Shown piece after piece: positions 19,071 to 38,376 of a stretch of 43,989 nucleotides of DNA; within the stretch, counting starts at the first letter, position 1, and each line of letters begins with the position of its first letter. Position numbers and translations under genes: made by a program. The DNA is from a virus: positions 1-43,989 of the IMG/VR virus record IMGVR_UViG_3300036670_000255. The stretch is one strand, 5' to 3'. The notes under the pieces are model-generated. The model was not told the origin of the DNA, did no database searches, and saw nothing but the letters and a program-made list of their open reading frames with translations.

Positions 19071-19586
19071 TTATAACCCCAGATATATATTCCAGCTGGG
19101 ATGATTTATATGCACTGACCTGATTTTCCATTTTTTTACCAGATTATAGTAATCTGGCTTGCATGGTACATTCAGTGGCTTCCATAATTTATGTCCTTTT
19201 TTACCATTGCAGGCAATGCATGAACTTGCACAATTTTCCCAATTGGTCACACCACCATCCTTGCGCGGTACCACGTGATCAATGGTCAGCAGTTTGTGGT
19301 CAAAGGTACCACCGCAGTACTGGCACTGGTACATGTCTCGTAGATACAAATTGGCTCTGCTGAACTTTACTGCCTTTTTATGACTAAAATAATCCTTGGT
19401 CACTGCCACGGCTGGCGCGTACATGGTAATATGCTCGCTGCGCAGTGGTATATTATCGTAAACCTCCAGGATTTCGATTTTCTTCAAAAAGAACAGCTTC
19501 ATTGCATGTTGCCAATCTATCACACTCAGTGGGAGTATGGATATGGGTAGCATATCACGATTTAGGAGAAGAGTGCCGGTGCTCAT
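19071..19586 (-). CDS. HNH endonuclease (McrA-like family)
   Basis: 171 residues from ATG 19586, chosen because the conserved family begins LLLNRDMLPISILPLSVIDW; the open frame extends 22 codons further without conservation. The HNH core is CQYCGGTF (C88, C91), DHVVPRKDGG (D103-H104), NWEN and CIAC (C123, C126) binding zinc. This family is widespread in bacteria and phages. It lies tail to tail with the head operon and back to back with the terminase gene; its sigma70 promoter overlaps the gp17 start region. It may be a homing nuclease acting near the intein-bearing terminase, or a packaging-associated HNH as in other phages. Confidence 0.82.
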   Translation of the reverse strand: MSTGTLLLNRDMLPISILPLSVIDWQHAMKLFFLKKIEILEVYDNIPLRSEHITMYAPAVAVTKDYFSHKKAVKFSRANLYLRDMYQCQYCGGTFDHKLLTIDHVVPRKDGGVTNWENCASSCIACNGKKGHKLWKPLNVPCKPDYYNLVKKWKIRSVHINHPSWNIYLGL

Positions 19587-19623
19587 GATATTAGTATAGG
19601 AATAATTGACTGATGAATGTATA

Positions 19624-19652
19624 AGTATACAATACCTGGAACAATAAGTCAA
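19624..19652 (-). promoter_or_regulatory. Sigma70-type promoter for the HNH gene
   Basis: On the minus strand TTGACT (19652-19647), a 17-base spacer and TATACT (19629-19624). It lies 38 bases upstream of the HNH start, abutting the gp17 ATG on the other strand. Confidence 0.65.
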
Positions 19653-19654
19653 AT

Positions 19655-20056
19655 ATGAGCGATAATGAATTTATAAGACGTGCCCATCAGAATATCAGCA
19701 TGACTGATGAGCAGACCGTGGAGTTTGTGAAATGCTGTGACCCAGTGGATGGTTATCGATACTTCATGACCACTTACTTTTATATACAGCATCCCACCAA
19801 GGGCAAGCTGTTATACGACCCATATGAATTCCAGGATAGGCTGATTGACAATTACCATGCCAACCGATTTAGTATCTCAATGATGCCTCGTCAAACGGGG
19901 AAATGTCTTACAGAAAGTATAACTATAACTATACGCAATAACATCACTGGCAAGCAGTATAGTTTACCCATAGGACTATTTTATGAATTTAACCAAGCAA
20001 AAAGAGACGGGACTACTATGCCAGAAATCTCAGGATATGAAATTAAAAGCATATAA
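19655..20056 (+). CDS. 17: Large terminase gp17, N-terminal part fused to intein N-fragment
   Basis: 133 residues. Residues 1-83 are the start of gp17, ending in MPRQTGK, the first part of the Walker A motif. Residue 84 is Cys, beginning an intein N-terminal block (CLTESITITIRNN), which continues 50 residues to a TAA. Removing the intein joins RQTGK to TTSAGG at 20546, giving an uninterrupted Walker A, so the insertion site is exact. The gp17 ATPase packages DNA through the portal; without splicing it has no P-loop. Whether this is a genuine split-gene half or the front of a frameshifted single gene is discussed in findings. Confidence 0.85.
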   Translation: MSDNEFIRRAHQNISMTDEQTVEFVKCCDPVDGYRYFMTTYFYIQHPTKGKLLYDPYEFQDRLIDNYHANRFSISMMPRQTGKCLTESITITIRNNITGKQYSLPIGLFYEFNQAKRDGTTMPEISGYEIKSI

Positions 20057-20545
20057 GCAGCTAATATGCAGATGTGGTACAGAGTTCCATGCGACCGGGT
20101 CAACTAGCAAGTTTTGCTCAGTTCTCACAGTGTGGGAAACTGACTATAAACAAAATAAAGAAAAAGTGATTCAAGAATGCATAAACTTTCTGACCAAATA
20201 GAACGGAAGTTCACTGATGTGATTCCATTAAATGAATGGGACATTTTGACTGATACCGGTTGGGCTCCATTGGTGGACATAAAACAAACCATCAAATATG
20301 AAGTCTATGACCTGGAGTTGGCCAACGGTTATAAATTATCAGGGGCAGACACACATATTATGTTTGATGCCAATCTAGACGAGGTATTTATTAAGGATCT
20401 CATCATTGGGTCAGTGGTTATAACAGATGCAGGCCCAGTCAATGTATCGATGATTAGACAGACTGGTGAATCACAGCATATGTACGATGTAGGGGTTGAT
20501 TCCGAGAATCATAGATTCTACTCCAATGGTATACTCAGCCACAAT
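19904..20545 (+). mobile_element. Intein in the gp17 Walker A motif, in non-continuous reading frames
   Basis: Starts with Cys1 (19904) and ends with SHN (20545) before Thr+1. Block A is in the first frame; a zinc-ribbon-like piece (CRCGTEF...SKFC, 20064-20117) lies in another frame (19983-20201); then the first frame again carries KYEVYDLELANG, block B ADTHIMFD (near 20351) and the C-terminal blocks DSENHRFYSNGILSHN. The protein reads through if one A is removed near 20045-20048 and one is added near 20173-20177. The break between blocks A and B is the same position at which the known AceL-TerL and related atypical split inteins are divided. No LAGLIDADG or HNH domain is visible inside. Confidence 0.8.
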
Positions 20546-21859
20546 ACCACCAGTGCTGGTGGCTATTTACTATGGTATGCCATGTTTGTTCCTGACAGTA
20601 CTATTCTAATTGCAGCGCACCAGTACAGCGGCGCCCAGGAAATCATGCAGCGTATCAGATACGCATACGAAATGTGCCCCATGTGGCTTAAAGCTGGTAC
20701 AGAGGCGTACAATCAGGGAAATATTGACTTTGACAACAAGAGTCGTATAGTAGCACGTGCCACCACTGAAAAAACTGGCCGTGGTATGTCATTATCACTG
20801 TTATATCTGGATGAATTTGCCTTTGTTAGGCCCACTATTGCCAAGGAATTTTGGGCTGCCATCAGTCCCACACTCAGCACTGGTGGTAAATGCATTATTA
20901 CCAGTACACCCAATAGCGACGAAGATCAATTTTCCCTGCTGTGGAAGGGGGCAAATAAAAAAATTGATGAATTTGGCATGCCAACTGAGTTGGGGGTAAA
21001 TGGATTCAGCCCATTCATATCACACTGGGCAGAGCACCCAGATCGGGATGAGACCTGGGCAACAGCAGAGCGTGGTAGAATTGGGGATGAACGATTCAGG
21101 CGTGAGCATGGGTTGGAGTTCTTAATTTTTGATGAGACACTGATATCACCCACTACGCTGATTGAAATGGCAGGGATCGACCCAGTGGAAAAACAGGGAC
21201 AGGTCAGATGGTTCAAGCGCCCAGCACGTGGTAACACCTATATGGTGGGACTGGACCCCAGCATGGGCACTGGTGGTGACCCTGCTGCCATACAGATACT
21301 GGAATTACCATCACTAATGCAAGTGGGTGAGTGGCAGCATAACAAAACTCCCATACAGCGGCAGGTCATTATTCTCAAAGAAGTCACTGAATACATCTAT
21401 AATTTAGTTGGTGCAGATACTGACATATACTATAGTGTGGAAAATAACTCTCTGGGCGAGGCGGCGCTGGTTACCATACAGCAAATTGGGGAAGAGAATA
21501 TACACGGAGTTTTTCTGTCAGAACCCAGTAAACCTGGCCAGCCTCGCAGGGGACGCAAGGGATTCAATACCACGCAGCGAACCAAGCTGGCAGTGTGCGC
21601 CAAGGCCAAGAGTTTAATAGAGCATAAAAAACTTAGAATAGCCAGTAAGAATTTAATCAGTGAACTCAAGAATTTTGTGGCCAGCGGTGGTAGCTATGCT
21701 GCAAAAATTGGTGAAACTGATGATCTGGTGATGTCGCTGATGCTGGTAATACGTATGACTCAGGCACTACAAGCATACGATGCCAACCTAGATGAGTTGA
21801 TGAAGGACAGTGAGCAGGATTATTTACAGCCCATGCCTTTTATTATGTCATCTTACTAG
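20177..21859 (+). CDS. 17: Intein C-fragment fused to large terminase gp17, main part
   Basis: 560 residues. Residues 1-123 are intein (block B, and C-terminal HN). From 20546 the gp17 ATPase resumes: TTSAGGYLLWYAM, LIAAHQYSGAQEIMQRI, the Walker B strand SLLYLDEFAF, the coupling motif ITSTPN, and the nuclease domain with GLDPSMGTGGDPAA (metal-binding Asp), a central VENNSLGEAAL and C-terminal DDLVMSLML. gp17 powers headful packaging and cuts concatemers. The ATG at 20177 has only a weak purine-rich stretch upstream (AAGAAAAAG), so independent translation of this half is possible but not compelling. It ends 50 bases before the next small late gene. Confidence 0.9.
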   Translation: MHKLSDQIERKFTDVIPLNEWDILTDTGWAPLVDIKQTIKYEVYDLELANGYKLSGADTHIMFDANLDEVFIKDLIIGSVVITDAGPVNVSMIRQTGESQHMYDVGVDSENHRFYSNGILSHNTTSAGGYLLWYAMFVPDSTILIAAHQYSGAQEIMQRIRYAYEMCPMWLKAGTEAYNQGNIDFDNKSRIVARATTEKTGRGMSLSLLYLDEFAFVRPTIAKEFWAAISPTLSTGGKCIITSTPNSDEDQFSLLWKGANKKIDEFGMPTELGVNGFSPFISHWAEHPDRDETWATAERGRIGDERFRREHGLEFLIFDETLISPTTLIEMAGIDPVEKQGQVRWFKRPARGNTYMVGLDPSMGTGGDPAAIQILELPSLMQVGEWQHNKTPIQRQVIILKEVTEYIYNLVGADTDIYYSVENNSLGEAALVTIQQIGEENIHGVFLSEPSKPGQPRRGRKGFNTTQRTKLAVCAKAKSLIEHKKLRIASKNLISELKNFVASGGSYAAKIGETDDLVMSLMLVIRMTQALQAYDANLDELMKDSEQDYLQPMPFIMSSY

Positions 21860-34013: not shown

Positions 34014-34736
34014 ATGTTTTATTTAATTTACAAAATAACCAATATTGTTAACAACAAAATTTATATAGGTTCCCATAGGACCAAAAATAAAAATGACAAG
34101 TATATGGGGTCTGGTAAATATCTAAATTATGCTATTAAAAAGCACGGCTTAGATAAGTTTACAAAAGAAATTCTATTTGAATTTGACAACGCTAAAGATA
34201 TGTATAGTAAAGAAGCAGAAATCGTAAATGACGATTTTTTATCTGATGAAAATACATATAATTTAAAGAGAGGTGGCTCTGGCGGATTTGATTACATTAA
34301 CTCAAGAGGGCTAGCAATGAACTCTGAGCACGGCAAATTAGGAGCAATCAGAACTAATGAGTTAAGAAAATCTGACCCAATTCTAGATAAAAAATTAAAA
34401 GATGTTTCTGCTGCAAATCTCAAAGCAGCACACAAGGCTGGTCTTATCAAATACGATACTTTTACTGGTAAGAATCATTCTCCCGAATCTAAGAAAAAAA
34501 TAGGAGAAGCAAACAGTAATAATCGAGGTATTAAAAATTCTCAATTTGGTACTATATGGATTACAAATGGTATTGAAAATAAAAAAATAAAATCAGATCT
34601 TTCCATCCCAGATGGGTGGTATAAAGGTCGCAAGTTTCGGGGAATTAGCTCATTTGGGAGAGCGACGGATTTGCAATTCGTAGGTGATCAGTTCGAAACT
34701 GATATTCTCCACCAAGTCATTACCGGACCGGCGTAA
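34014..34736 (+). CDS. GIY-YIG homing endonuclease overlapping a tRNA gene
   Basis: 240 residues. GIY-YIG domain at the start (FYLIYKITNIVNNKIYIGSH, 2-21), GSGKYLNYAIKKHG, catalytic Glu context SKEAEIV, then basic NUMOD-like helices (NHSPESKKKIGEAN). From about residue 209 on the frame runs through the tRNA-Ala gene at 34639-34714, so the C-terminal 30 or so residues are tRNA sequence read as protein. AT-rich and free of the CAGTG word that fills the phage genes, which suggests recent entry. Free-standing nucleases of this type usually cut in or beside the tRNA genes they flank. Confidence 0.82.
   Translation: MFYLIYKITNIVNNKIYIGSHRTKNKNDKYMGSGKYLNYAIKKHGLDKFTKEILFEFDNAKDMYSKEAEIVNDDFLSDENTYNLKRGGSGGFDYINSRGLAMNSEHGKLGAIRTNELRKSDPILDKKLKDVSAANLKAAHKAGLIKYDTFTGKNHSPESKKKIGEANSNNRGIKNSQFGTIWITNGIENKKIKSDLSIPDGWYKGRKFRGISSFGRATDLQFVGDQFETDILHQVITGPA
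34639..34714 (+). tRNA. tRNA-Ala(TGC), inside the 3' end of the GIY-YIG ORF
   Basis: Acceptor GGGGAAT/ATTCTCC, D-stem GCTC/GAGC, anticodon ACGGA/TTCGT with loop TTTGCAA (TGC), T-stem ATCAG/CTGAT, CCA encoded. Fully overlapped by the nuclease reading frame. The stretch 34715-34836 that follows has no gene I can support. Confidence 0.87.
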
Positions 34737-36238: not shown

Positions 36239-36309
36239 GTTGGCCTGACGGAGAAGTTAGGCACTAGTCTGCAAAACTGGCAAGATGGGAGCGTTACCCG
36301 TGGCCAACT
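36239..36309 (+). tRNA. tRNA-Cys(GCA)
   Basis: Acceptor GTTGGCC/GGCCAAC, anticodon CTAGT/ACTGG with loop CTGCAAA (GCA), no CCA. D- and T-arms are weak. Flanking CACATATA/TACATGTG lengthen the acceptor helix with one mismatch. Confidence 0.75.
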
Positions 36310-36340
36310 ACATGTGACCTATGATCCAGCAAAAGAAAAA

Positions 36341-36414
36341 ATCTCTATAGTTTAAAGGAAGAACACCGGCCTTTCACGTCGGCGATGCGATGTCAGGATT
36401 CGCTAGAGATACCA
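36341..36414 (+). tRNA. tRNA-Glu(TTC)
   Basis: Acceptor ATCTCTA/TAGAGAT, D-stem GTTT/GAAC, anticodon CCGGC/GTCGG with loop CTTTCAC (TTC), CCA encoded; T-loop atypical (GTCAGGA). Confidence 0.78.
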
Positions 36415-36421
36415 AATTTAT

Positions 36422-36451
36422 TCCCTTGTAGCTCAGTTGGTAGAGCACACC
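36422..36451 (+). pseudogene. 5' half of a broken tRNA (Asn-like)
   Basis: Acceptor TCCCTTG, TA, D-arm GCTC-AGTTGGTA-GAGC identical to the D-arm of tRNA-Asn(ATT) at 38301, then it breaks off at the anticodon stem. The matching acceptor strand CAAGGGA-G-CCA is 840 bases away at 37292-37302. Confidence 0.6.
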
Positions 36452-36467
36452 ATAAATTTAGTTTTAT

Positions 36468-36550
36468 TCCACGAGAGCCGCCGGGTGTGGCAGCAGACTG
36501 TTAATCTGTGTCGAAAGACTAGCTGGGTTCGAGTCCTAGTCGTGGAGCCA
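36468..36550 (+). tRNA. tRNA-Asn(GTT) with a long variable arm
   Basis: Acceptor TCCACGA/TCGTGGA, discriminator G, anticodon GCAGA/TCTGT with loop CTGTTAA (GTT), CCA encoded. The variable arm holds a GTC-GAAA-GAC hairpin, unusual for Asn. Nested between two halves of a broken tRNA. Confidence 0.78.
36512..36533 (+). repeat. Direct repeat, copy 1 (22 identical bases; copy 2 at 37264-37285)
   Basis: Covers the variable arm and T-loop start of tRNA-Asn. The ACTGTT anticodon segment lies exactly 15 bases upstream in both copies, and GGAGCCATTGA follows in both. Confidence 0.9.
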
Positions 36551-36552
36551 TT

Positions 36553-36560
36553 GATAAATA
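36553..36560 (+). promoter_or_regulatory. Late promoter variant 5 nt before a start codon
   Basis: GATAAATA, five bases before ATG 36566 of the HNH gene, no Shine-Dalgarno. Confidence 0.5.
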
Positions 36561-36565
36561 TCTAT

Positions 36566-37195
36566 ATGTATAAATGTATAGAATGTAGTAAATCTTTTGC
36601 CAGTATTATGGCACTAACTGGGCACAAAAGGATGCACGGAGGATCACAGGGCAAATCTAAAAAAATAGTTTGTTCTTGTTTGATTACTAGAAAAATAATG
36701 CCGTACCAGTATTTGGATCAATATCAATCAAAGTTAATTGGATGTAAACAATGTAGTAAGTTGTTTAATCCGACCGTAAATAGAACAACTTTTTGTTCTC
36801 AATCTTGTTCTGCTACTTGTAACAATACGATTCGACCCAAACGATTGAAGAAGGAAAAGCCTCCTAAAATTGTAAAAGAAAAGAAAGTGTATACTGAGCA
36901 GGAGAAGAAAGCGAAAAATGTTTCGGCAGTACAAGCATATAGGGCTAGGAAATATAGTGCAACTTTACCTAGTACTGATCGTAAACTTATTAACAAGATA
37001 TACGAAAGATGTCCTAAAGGATATGAAGTTGATCATATAATTGCACTAGCCGAAGGCGGTGCTCATCACCAAGACAATTTGCAATATCTTCCTGCTATGG
37101 AAAATAGAAGAAAGAATAGAACACAGAATTATAATAAAGATCTTGCAATACGTTGGGAAATCAGTTCTATTGGGGAATTGCCTAGTCCGGTCTAA
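36566..37195 (+). CDS. HNH homing endonuclease with C2H2 zinc finger
   Basis: 209 residues from ATG 36566; the open frame extends upstream only through the tRNA. An N-terminal C2H2 finger (C4, C7, H20, H24), a second CKQCSKLF...FCSQSC zinc element, a basic linker, and a C-terminal HNH: CPKGYEVDHIIALAEGGAHH, DNLQYL, ENRRKN. AT-rich with essentially none of the CAGTG words typical of the phage. It lies between the halves of a broken tRNA-Asn and follows an intact tRNA-Asn. Confidence 0.82.
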   Translation: MYKCIECSKSFASIMALTGHKRMHGGSQGKSKKIVCSCLITRKIMPYQYLDQYQSKLIGCKQCSKLFNPTVNRTTFCSQSCSATCNNTIRPKRLKKEKPPKIVKEKKVYTEQEKKAKNVSAVQAYRARKYSATLPSTDRKLINKIYERCPKGYEVDHIIALAEGGAHHQDNLQYLPAMENRRKNRTQNYNKDLAIRWEISSIGELPSPV

Positions 37196-37248
37196 GGCAA
37201 CGGTCTTAGGCGGACCCTTAAACCTCCCTGCCTACATAGTAGGTGGAA

Positions 37249-37302
37249 ACTGTTGGAACTACACGAAAGACTAGCTGGGTTCGAGCCGAGTCAAGGGAGC
37301 CA
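37249..37302 (+). pseudogene. 3' half of a broken tRNA-Asn, with repeat copy 2
   Basis: Begins ACTGTT (anticodon GTT), contains repeat copy 2 (37264-37285) and ends CAAGGGA-G-CCA, which pairs over 7 bp with TCCCTTG at 36422-36428. The T-stem no longer pairs. The rest of 37196-37474 holds no gene. Confidence 0.6.
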
Positions 37303-37474
37303 TTGAATCATGGAGCAACACGGTGTAATACCTGTGTTCCCAATCAAGTTTTGTATATGAGCCCGAAGATTGAGGGAGCCTTACGTGGGCGACAGACGAT
37401 TGAAATGATCTCCATATGCGCCAATTTTGTTATTTTGCACATTGTGCCAGGAGATAGAGTGCTACAATAATATT

Positions 37475-37548
37475 ACCAGTGTAATTCAATGATAGAATAA
37501 TCGACTGATAATCGATCTACGAAAGTTTGATTCTTTCCACTGGTACCA
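37475..37548 (+). tRNA. tRNA-Ile(GAT)
   Basis: Acceptor ACCAGTG/CACTGGT, D-stem ATTC/GAAT, anticodon ATCGA/TCGAT with loop CTGATAA (GAT), T-stem GAAAG/CTTTC, CCA encoded. Confidence 0.88.
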
Positions 37549-37706: not shown

Positions 37707-37797
37707 AGTTTTGTTAGCCCTAACAAATTTAGTTTATTCTCAGATCTAGATATTTTGATCAGCATGCACCAGCTGCATAAACACGTTGGATTACCAT

Positions 37798-38310
37798 ATG
37801 AAAATTTGCCCTAAGTGCAATGCGGGACACGAAAAGTCTGGAAAATACTGTTGTAGAAGTTGTGCCAATAGCAGAATATTTACCACGGAGGCCAAAGAAA
37901 AAAAACGAAATAAATCGTTATCATTTTGGTCACAGTATAATGCAGATGAAAGAAAAGAACTCCATAAAGAAAAGATGGGGTTATACGACTTTGATCATCA
38001 TCAAAAACAAGTACAACAGGCAAATAGGATGAGGGAGTGGAGTAAGCCCTACGAGGAAATGAGTCATCCGTCAGTTCGTAAAAGACTATTGCATGAACGA
38101 AACTACATCTGCGAAGAATGTGGTACAGGTAATACATATAACGGAAAGCCGCTAAGTCTAGAACTAGACCACAAAGACGGAAATAGTAAGAATAACAAAA
38201 TTGAAAATTTAAGAATACTTTGCCCTAACTGTCATTCACAAACTCCGACACATAGAGGAAAGAATATTAAATACAAAAGGTTGTTATTAGATAAGAATAT
38301 TGGCACATAG
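37798..38310 (+). CDS. HNH endonuclease ending inside tRNA-Asn(ATT)
   Basis: 170 residues from ATG 37798. An N-terminal CPKCNAGHEKSGKYCCRSC zinc ribbon, a basic helical middle, and a C-terminal zinc HNH: CEECGTG, LELDHKDGNSKNNKIENL, RILCPNCHSQTP. The stop codon TAG is the T8-A9-G10 of the following tRNA-Asn(ATT), so the gene abuts its likely target. AT-rich and lacking the CAGTG word, hence probably a recent arrival. Confidence 0.85.
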   Translation: MKICPKCNAGHEKSGKYCCRSCANSRIFTTEAKEKKRNKSLSFWSQYNADERKELHKEKMGLYDFDHHQKQVQQANRMREWSKPYEEMSHPSVRKRLLHERNYICEECGTGNTYNGKPLSLELDHKDGNSKNNKIENLRILCPNCHSQTPTHRGKNIKYKRLLLDKNIGT

Positions 38311-38376
38311 CTCAGTTGGTAGAGCGTTCGGTTATTAACCGAAATGTCCCTGGTTCGAGCCCAGGTTTGCCAGCCA
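38301..38376 (+). tRNA. tRNA-Asn(ATT)
   Basis: D-arm GCTC-AGTTGGTA-GAGC, anticodon TTCGG/CCGAA with loop TTATTAA (ATT), T-stem CCTGG/CCAGG, discriminator G, CCA encoded; acceptor TGGCACA/TTTGCCA with one mismatch. A34 is rare for Asn. Confidence 0.82.

What the first reader, a model, noticed from the sequence alone, without database searches (positions are those of the whole stretch)
36422..37302. tRNA-Asn split by an element that carries a replacement tRNA-Asn and an HNH nuclease
TCCCTTG-TA-D-arm at 36422 and a 3' half ending CAAGGGA-G-CCA at 37302 are the two ends of one tRNA; the 3' half begins at the anticodon GTT. Between them sit an intact tRNA-Asn(GTT) and an HNH gene. The 22-base direct repeat plus matching spacing shows that the two 3' ends are duplicates. 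This looks like a homing element that breaks its target tRNA at the anticodon arm but supplies a working copy.
Basis: partly seen in the sequence, partly recalled or inferred. Interest (0 to 1): 0.8.

Follow-up and report, generated by a model that had tools for sequence, protein, structure and literature searches.

The report
Homing nuclease cassette with replacement tRNA
In this phage a mobile DNA-cutting gene travelling with its own asparagine tRNA has landed inside the phage's resident asparagine tRNA gene and broken it, and the same arrangement turns up with other tRNAs and other nucleases in other phages, including named Salmonella and E. coli phages.

Summary
In detail: the tRNA pieces at 36422 and 37302 are ends of one tRNA-Asn (X), and an intact allele with both ends identical exists (L098). 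X keeps nt 1-26 and resumes at the T-loop; its anticodon arm is gone. The 22-bp repeat is a fragment of the inserted tRNA-Asn (Y), and a tRNA-Gln half also lies there. No intron model matches. Y plus an HNH gene, ATG 16 nt after Y, is a cassette shared by phages with different neighbours. Contigs L194 and L163 are an empty/filled pair: about 98% identical flanks, intact tRNA-Asn versus one broken at nt 28 by the same cassette. The pattern (broken tRNA, nuclease gene, complete but 56-66% identical tRNA of the same isotype) recurs with Phe, Ile, Ser and Met. Named phages show it exactly: LPEK22 has an intact tRNA-Met; in PhaxI, with 96-98% identical flanks, 808 bp carrying a nuclease gene and a different tRNA-Met(CAT) replace its nt 28-70. 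Best explanation: homing cassettes that break a tRNA gene and bring a divergent working replacement. Cleavage and tRNA function are inferred, not shown. My ten literature searches found no description of this arrangement.

The parts
36422..36447 (+). 5' part of broken resident tRNA-Asn X (acceptor, D arm, nt 26)
   Evidence: identical to nt 1-26 of intact tRNA-Asn in L098
36448..36467 (+). left edge of the insert, CACCA plus spacer; looks like the tail of a tRNA that preceded Y in a donor
   Evidence: same edge in L151/L153/L154/L163; Y follows ...CACCA plus a short spacer in L040, L159 and L168
36468..36550 (+). complete replacement tRNA-Asn(GTT) Y, with GAAA-capped variable arm
   Evidence: 24 pairs, 100% paired in 16 distinct sequences, 5 pairs with changes on both sides
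36566..37195 (+). HNH endonuclease gene with N-terminal C2H2 finger; stop codon lies in the tRNA-Gln half
   Evidence: (zf-C2H2_6 above cut-off, HNH below it); dN/dS about 0.06-0.1
37171..37207 (+). 5' half of a tRNA-Gln(TTG), broken within the anticodon
   Evidence: 36 of 37 nt identical to L188 tRNA-Gln
37208..37263 (+). 56 nt of unknown origin
   Evidence: no informative match in the loci then held
37264..37285 (+). 22-nt fragment of Y (variable arm to T-loop), second copy of the direct repeat
   Evidence: (D19)
37279..37302 (+). 3' end of broken tRNA-Asn X, from the T-loop to CCA (first 7 nt shared with the Y fragment)
   Evidence: identical to the last 24 nt of L098 tRNA-Asn

Best explanation
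A mobile cassette made of a free-standing HNH homing endonuclease gene and a linked, divergent tRNA-Asn(GTT) (Y) entered the resident tRNA-Asn gene (X) of this phage. The likely steps: the nuclease cuts X in or near its anticodon arm; the broken end carrying the D arm pairs with or joins the donor; cassette DNA is copied in; part of X is lost. X is dead, and Y decodes the same codons. Shown by sequence: the broken X with intact alleles, the Y-HNH linkage across genomes, the same left junction in two X alleles, an empty/filled pair for tRNA-Asn, and the same architecture with other nucleases and tRNAs including an exact empty/filled pair in named phages. Inferred: that the HNH does the cutting, that Y lacks its site, and that Y is charged and used. 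The right end in this window was remodelled by further recombination at short tRNA homologies.
For: Intact X alleles. L194 (intact) versus L163 (broken by the cassette): identical for 28 nt from tRNA nt 1, then diverging; 97.8% over 3171 bp left and 97.6% over 3800 bp further right. Y-HNH spacing of 16 nt in window, L104, L105, L151 (and the same place in L159, HNH frameshifted) with different neighbours. HNH under purifying selection. Y pairs compensate. LPEK22 versus PhaxI: 27 nt shared from tRNA-Met nt 1, 808 bp replace 43 bp, match resumes at nt 71; flanks 96.3% and 98.2%. The same Met cassette sits in a different tRNA-Met allele in SW16-7 (Agtrevirus) and an 85% version in cp19 (Taipeivirus). 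9 of 29 matching records hold at least 80% of the cassette query (8 phages, PhaxI deposited twice); 132 of 223 matching records hold at least 80% of the 251-bp empty-site query. Phe cassette in L189, L021, L157; Ile L015 and Ser L163, whose 5' halves still carry anticodons GAT and TGA. Resident and incoming tRNA 56-66% identical.
Against: No biochemical evidence of cleavage. L163's right flank is mosaic, with exchange reaching tRNA-Asp, so it is not a minimal insertion. In the window the right end holds a tRNA-Gln half, 56 unknown nt and a Y fragment, more than simple homing gives. Most Y genes (15 of 22 non-duplicate Y rows) have no related HNH nearby, so Y also lives alone. In L104, L105 and L159 the cassette sits in the array with no broken tRNA seen beside it. 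The window and L163 left junctions are in register and may trace to one event plus recombination. The cassette order differs: tRNA before nuclease here, nuclease before tRNA in the other cases.
Confidence: 0.74

Rival explanations
1. Generic shuffling of phage tRNA arrays: recombination at short homologies inside tRNA genes (D arm, anticodon arm, T-loop) broke X and brought in Y and HNH by chance; the nuclease is a passenger.
For: tRNA-Gln half cut in its anticodon; L163's exchange ends inside tRNA-Asp; other tRNA fragments exist in these arrays; junctions at GCA and GTTCGAG microhomologies.
Against: 10 of 12 ORFs of at least 100 aa that start within 130 nt of an unpaired 5' half are nuclease-like, by profile, by similarity to the L189 nuclease or by eye, and the following or enclosed complete tRNA has the same isotype in every lineage where the broken one could be typed independently (Asn, Met, Ser, Ile, Phe). 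The Met cassette has the same left junction in three genera.
Confidence: 0.2
2. An intron or trans-spliced tRNA: X is split but its transcript is spliced, with HNH as intron-encoded endonuclease.
For: Split tRNA with an internal endonuclease gene; group I introns occur in tRNAs of similar phages.
Against: No intron model in 36300-37500 at E<=10; X lacks its anticodon arm and T-stem 5' strand altogether; a full tRNA-Asn lies inside.
Confidence: 0.02
3. Site-specific integration into a tRNA gene as by an integrase, which rebuilds the tRNA from an attachment site copy.
For: Direct repeat; tRNA target; a functional-looking tRNA remains.
Against: No integrase-sized second ORF in the insert; the repeat is not at both outer edges of X and one copy lies inside Y; both X parts are left useless; the new tRNA differs along its whole length.
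Confidence: 0.02
4. Assembly artefact of a metagenome contig.
For: Single contig for the right end; uncultivated virus.
Against: Left junction recurs in other contigs (L151, L153, L154; L152 starts inside it); the same architecture occurs in eight named phages.
Confidence: 0.02

Closest known systems
SegB of T4/T6 (free-standing GIY-YIG homing endonuclease in the tRNA region)
   Same: Free-standing nuclease inside a phage tRNA array, reported to cleave tRNA-containing DNA and to drive inheritance and amplification of tRNA genes (PMC13096335, passages read; PMC2988022, passages read).
   Different: SegB sits between tRNA-Arg and tRNA-Ile and targets a tRNA intergenic region (PMC2988022 table); no broken target tRNA with a replacement of the same isotype appears in the passages read. 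Different nuclease families here.
Group I introns with homing endonucleases in tRNA genes
   Same: Nuclease gene placed in the anticodon arm of a tRNA gene; homing by break repair.
   Different: No ribozyme; the target is not repaired by splicing but replaced by a second tRNA.
Transposition-like insertions of phage nuclease genes (mobE in nrdA of Aeh1, mobA in gene 60 of T4)
   Same: Nuclease gene inserted in a phage gene (PMC2988022, passages).
   Different: Those are protein genes; here a complete replacement of the broken gene travels with the nuclease.
Cleave-and-Rescue gene drives (engineered)
   Same: Nuclease against a gene plus a recoded rescue copy in one element (PMC7951863, abstract start in search listing; the rest recalled).
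   Different: Engineered CRISPR elements in insects; here a natural phage element with a tRNA as rescue. The analogy is functional only and untested.
Fungal mitochondrial endonuclease elements that bring a replacement gene end (recalled; PMC3630166 seen only as a listing row and abstract start)
   Same: Nuclease gene inserted in a gene together with a substitute for the displaced part (recalled).
   Different: Protein genes in mitochondria, partial replacement; recalled, not tested.

Membership tests
Free-standing phage homing endonuclease (intronless homing) | Nuclease domain of a homing endonuclease type | tested here: met
   HNH motif and C2H2 finger in the window protein; the Pfam HNH score is below the curated cut-off, PHROG HNH/endonuclease VII families match
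Free-standing phage homing endonuclease (intronless homing) | Present/absent polymorphism at one locus with high identity of both flanks | tested here: met
   L194/L163 and LPEK22/PhaxI; not available for the window's own flanks
Free-standing phage homing endonuclease (intronless homing) | Cuts the allele that lacks it | not testable with these tools
   needs biochemistry
Free-standing phage homing endonuclease (intronless homing) | Biased inheritance in mixed infection | not testable with these tools
   needs crosses
Group I or II intron | Intron RNA core between the exons | tested here: not met
   no Rfam intron at 36300-37500 up to E=10; controls found in L159, L019
Group I or II intron | Exons that together make the whole RNA | tested here: not met
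   X nt 27-52 absent
tRNA-targeting integrative element | Integrase gene and att repeats at both ends | tested here: not met
   the insert's only long ORF is the HNH gene; one repeat copy lies within Y
Cleave-and-Rescue type element | Linked functional rescue of the broken gene, diverged enough to escape the nuclease | tested here: inconclusive
   same anticodon and only 56-66% identity; escape from cutting and function not tested

The most novel reading that the evidence does not exclude
Phage tRNA arrays carry a general class of natural cleave-and-rescue elements: a homing endonuclease of one of several families plus a complete, divergent tRNA of the isotype it destroys. They insert in the anticodon arm, swap one tRNA lineage for another, and leave the new tRNA behind when the nuclease decays (L163 has a truncated HNH; phage KE27 keeps the incoming tRNA-Met and the right junction without the nuclease). 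They may descend from tRNA group I intron endonucleases that exchanged splicing for a spare tRNA.
Probability: 0.5. Interest if true: 0.9.

Novelty: new variant of a known kind. Interest (0 to 1): 0.8.

Why it matters
It gives a concrete mechanism for why phage tRNA sets turn over and why arrays are full of tRNA halves and nuclease genes: selfish elements that replace a tRNA rather than merely sit beside it. If cutting is confirmed, it is a natural cleave-and-rescue system in culturable phages, testable at once with PhaxI-type and LPEK22-type phages. It also warns that many annotated phage tRNAs may be recent arrivals brought by nucleases, which matters for ideas about codon use and escape from tRNA-cutting defences.

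Tried and rejected
Intron reading: rejected. 3' half from the anticodon: rejected. Y as a remoulded tRNA-Tyr: not supported; mean similarity is highest to Asn, and the single best hit is an odd Phe. Fold of 37150-37306 as a structured RNA: no better than shuffles, z -0.22. Syntenic empty site for the window itself: the 408-aa neighbour gave no relative; 80 UvsX loci gave no X allele. HNH relatives in bacterial genomes: none. Origin of 37208-37263: unresolved. The isotype agreement is not given a formal p-value because neighbours are not independent. The isotype of the broken 5' half could not be fixed for L021, L030 (position 2258) and L032; L060 is probably Thr; L177 is consistent with Met. 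L127 is irregular: nuclease on the other strand, chimaeric tRNA-Pro. Rows dropped: collapse or mark duplicates; one search kept 5' halves with at least 17 of 19 matches in the D arm; one search kept those with 1.2 kb downstream, which drops L189 and L177. Of the 12 ORFs, L178 and L108 are not nucleases; L163-Ser and L060 are nuclease-like by eye only (L163-Ser gave only a weak finger match; L060 was not scanned); L015 and L032 rest on 25-30% similarity to the L189 nuclease; L030 is an HNH_3 match below the cut-off. The Y covariation test is biased: the search pattern fixed the D and anticodon arms.

Full report
WHAT IS THERE. The window is an uncultivated virus record (G000) with T4-type genes and 22 tRNA genes called by ARAGORN. 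At 36422-36447 lies the 5' part of a tRNA: acceptor TCCCTTG, D arm and nt 26. At 37279-37302 lies a 3' end: T-loop, CGAGT, CAAGGGA, G, CCA. Between them are a complete tRNA-Asn(GTT) (Y, 36468-36550), an HNH gene (36566-37195), the 5' half of a tRNA-Gln cut inside its anticodon (37171-37207; 36 of 37 nt as in L188), 56 nt of unknown origin, and a 22-nt fragment of Y that overlaps the X 3' end by GTTCGAG. The HNH stop codon lies within the tRNA-Gln half.

X IS ONE BROKEN tRNA-Asn. A search of viral contigs for the 5' half plus a matching 3' acceptor gave two intact tRNA-Asn genes (L098, L181). L098 has the same 26 nt at its 5' end and the same 24 nt at its 3' end as the window pieces. In the window nt 27-52 of X are missing, so the anticodon arm is gone, and the Y fragment cannot replace the lost T-stem strand. 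In a scan of the loci then held plus the window, 317 candidate half pairs gave 4 with complementary acceptors against a shuffled mean of 0.034. Two of those four are clean (window, L189), one is irregular (L127) and one looks spurious (L159).

NOT AN INTRON. Rfam finds no intron at 36300-37500 up to E=10, but does find group I introns in a split tRNA-Leu (L159) and a split tRNA-Arg (L019), so the test can detect them.

THE CASSETTE. Y is a stand-alone tRNA in many phages: 25 stretches match a 36-nt Y pattern, and 16 distinct sequences form all 24 pairs with five pairs changed on both sides (the pattern fixed the D and anticodon arms, so only the other helices are informative). In the window, L104, L105 and L151 the HNH ATG lies exactly 16 nt after Y, and in L159 the HNH sequence starts at the same place with a frameshift later on; the genes on either side differ, except that the window and L151 share the left edge. 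The HNH is conserved by selection: dN 0.12-0.16, dS 1.4-2.4. Of 22 non-duplicate Y rows, 15 have no related HNH nearby.

EMPTY AND FILLED SITES FOR tRNA-Asn. L194 and L163 are the same locus: 97.8% identity over 3171 bp to the left and 97.6% over 3800 bp further right. L194 has an intact tRNA-Asn. In L163 the sequence is identical for its first 28 nt and then changes to the cassette (CCATAAATTTAG-spacer-Y-HNH, HNH cut after 20 codons). The exchange extends to tRNA-Asp, so it is not minimal. The window has the same insert edge behind a different X allele (TCCCTTG rather than TCCTCAG), so the cassette has moved between tRNA-Asn alleles. Whether this was two events or one event plus recombination in the D arm cannot be told.

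THE SAME PATTERN ELSEWHERE. L189: tRNA-Phe 5' half ending in the anticodon loop, a 203-aa nuclease (Phage_endo_I and NUMOD3 above their cut-offs), a complete tRNA-Phe(GAA), then the 3' half with acceptor AGGTAGC matching GCTACTT. L021 carries a 61% identical nuclease and a related tRNA-Phe behind another 5' half; L157 carries the tail of the cassette in front of another tRNA-Phe 3' end. L015 and L163 (at 4644) have 5' halves cut just after the anticodons GAT and TGA, followed by an ORF and a complete tRNA-Ile(GAT) or tRNA-Ser(TGA). Of 41 distinct unpaired 5' halves with 1.2 kb downstream, 12 are followed within 130 nt by an ORF of at least 100 aa; 10 of these are nuclease-like, two of them by eye only. 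Resident and incoming tRNA are only 56-66% identical where compared (six comparisons, three of them over the 5' part alone).

NAMED PHAGES. Relatives of the L189 nuclease led to Escherichia phage PhaxI. Against Escherichia phage LPEK22, PhaxI is 96.3% identical over 513 bp up to tRNA-Met nt 27, then has 808 bp in place of nt 28-70, and matches again from nt 71 at 98.2% over 494 bp. The 808 bp hold a nuclease gene (F371_gp006) and a different tRNA-Met with the same CAT anticodon. The cassette is in 9 of 29 matching records at 80% coverage or more (PhaxI twice), among them SW16-7 (Agtrevirus) with another tRNA-Met allele and cp19 (Taipeivirus, 84.8%), with the left junction at the same place. 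The uninterrupted site is in 132 of 223 matching records at 80% coverage or more. The nuclease has dN 0.07, dS 0.84 between PhaxI and cp19. Salmonella phage KE27 keeps the incoming tRNA-Met, the following stretch and the right junction but no nuclease and no 5' half, as expected if the tRNA outlives the nuclease.

MECHANISM. Shown: broken targets, linked replacement tRNA, movement of the cassette between genomes and alleles. Inferred: the nuclease makes the break; the break falls in the anticodon arm; the incoming tRNA escapes cutting and is functional. A sequence like the phage late promoter (TATAAATA, recalled) precedes the nuclease start in 7 of 11 places looked at.

COMPARISON. It works like free-standing phage homing endonucleases such as SegB in the T4/T6 tRNA region (PMC2988022 and PMC13096335, passages; the original SegB paper is not held). 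I found no description of a nuclease that carries a replacement for the tRNA it breaks in ten searches of the open library; I read passages of four papers and saw only listings of the rest, and most subscription journals are not held.

Noticed in passing
window 37786-38310 and 38301-38376: A second HNH gene whose stop codon TAG is nt 8-10 of a tRNA-Asn with the unusual anticodon ATT. Of 39 ORFs of at least 110 aa ending in the first 30 nt or so of a same-strand tRNA, 15 have their stop at tRNA nt 8.
   Followed up: partly
window 34014-34736: GIY-YIG gene whose reading frame runs right through tRNA-Ala (34639-34714).
   Followed up: no
window 19655-21859: Large terminase gene split in two ORFs (19655-20056, 20177-21859) at intein-like sequence; an HNH-like gene lies just upstream on the other strand (19071-19652) (intein and HNH by eye).
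   Followed up: no
window 32430, 32565, 35322: Three copies of a 33-nt repeat with TTGACA-like and TATAAT-like boxes, probably promoters for the tRNA array.
   Followed up: no
window 36341-36411, 37475-37545: tRNA genes found by Rfam but not by ARAGORN.
   Followed up: no
window 36468-36550: tRNA-Asn class with a GAAA-capped variable arm, unusual for Asn; its origin could not be resolved.
   Followed up: partly
L127:3944-4507: Nuclease gene on the opposite strand inside a tRNA-Pro whose 5' acceptor pairs with a 3' end beyond the nuclease; the tRNA body carries a foreign acceptor.
   Followed up: partly
L159:6439-6638, L019:10004-10198: Group I introns in tRNA-Leu and tRNA-Arg of other phage arrays; L178 and L161 look alike by eye.
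   Followed up: partly
L287:2455-2495 and L294: The start of the Met cassette is a hairpin (AAGTAATACC...GGTATTACTT) whose loop is inverted between PhaxI and SW16-7, just before the nuclease start codon.
   Followed up: no
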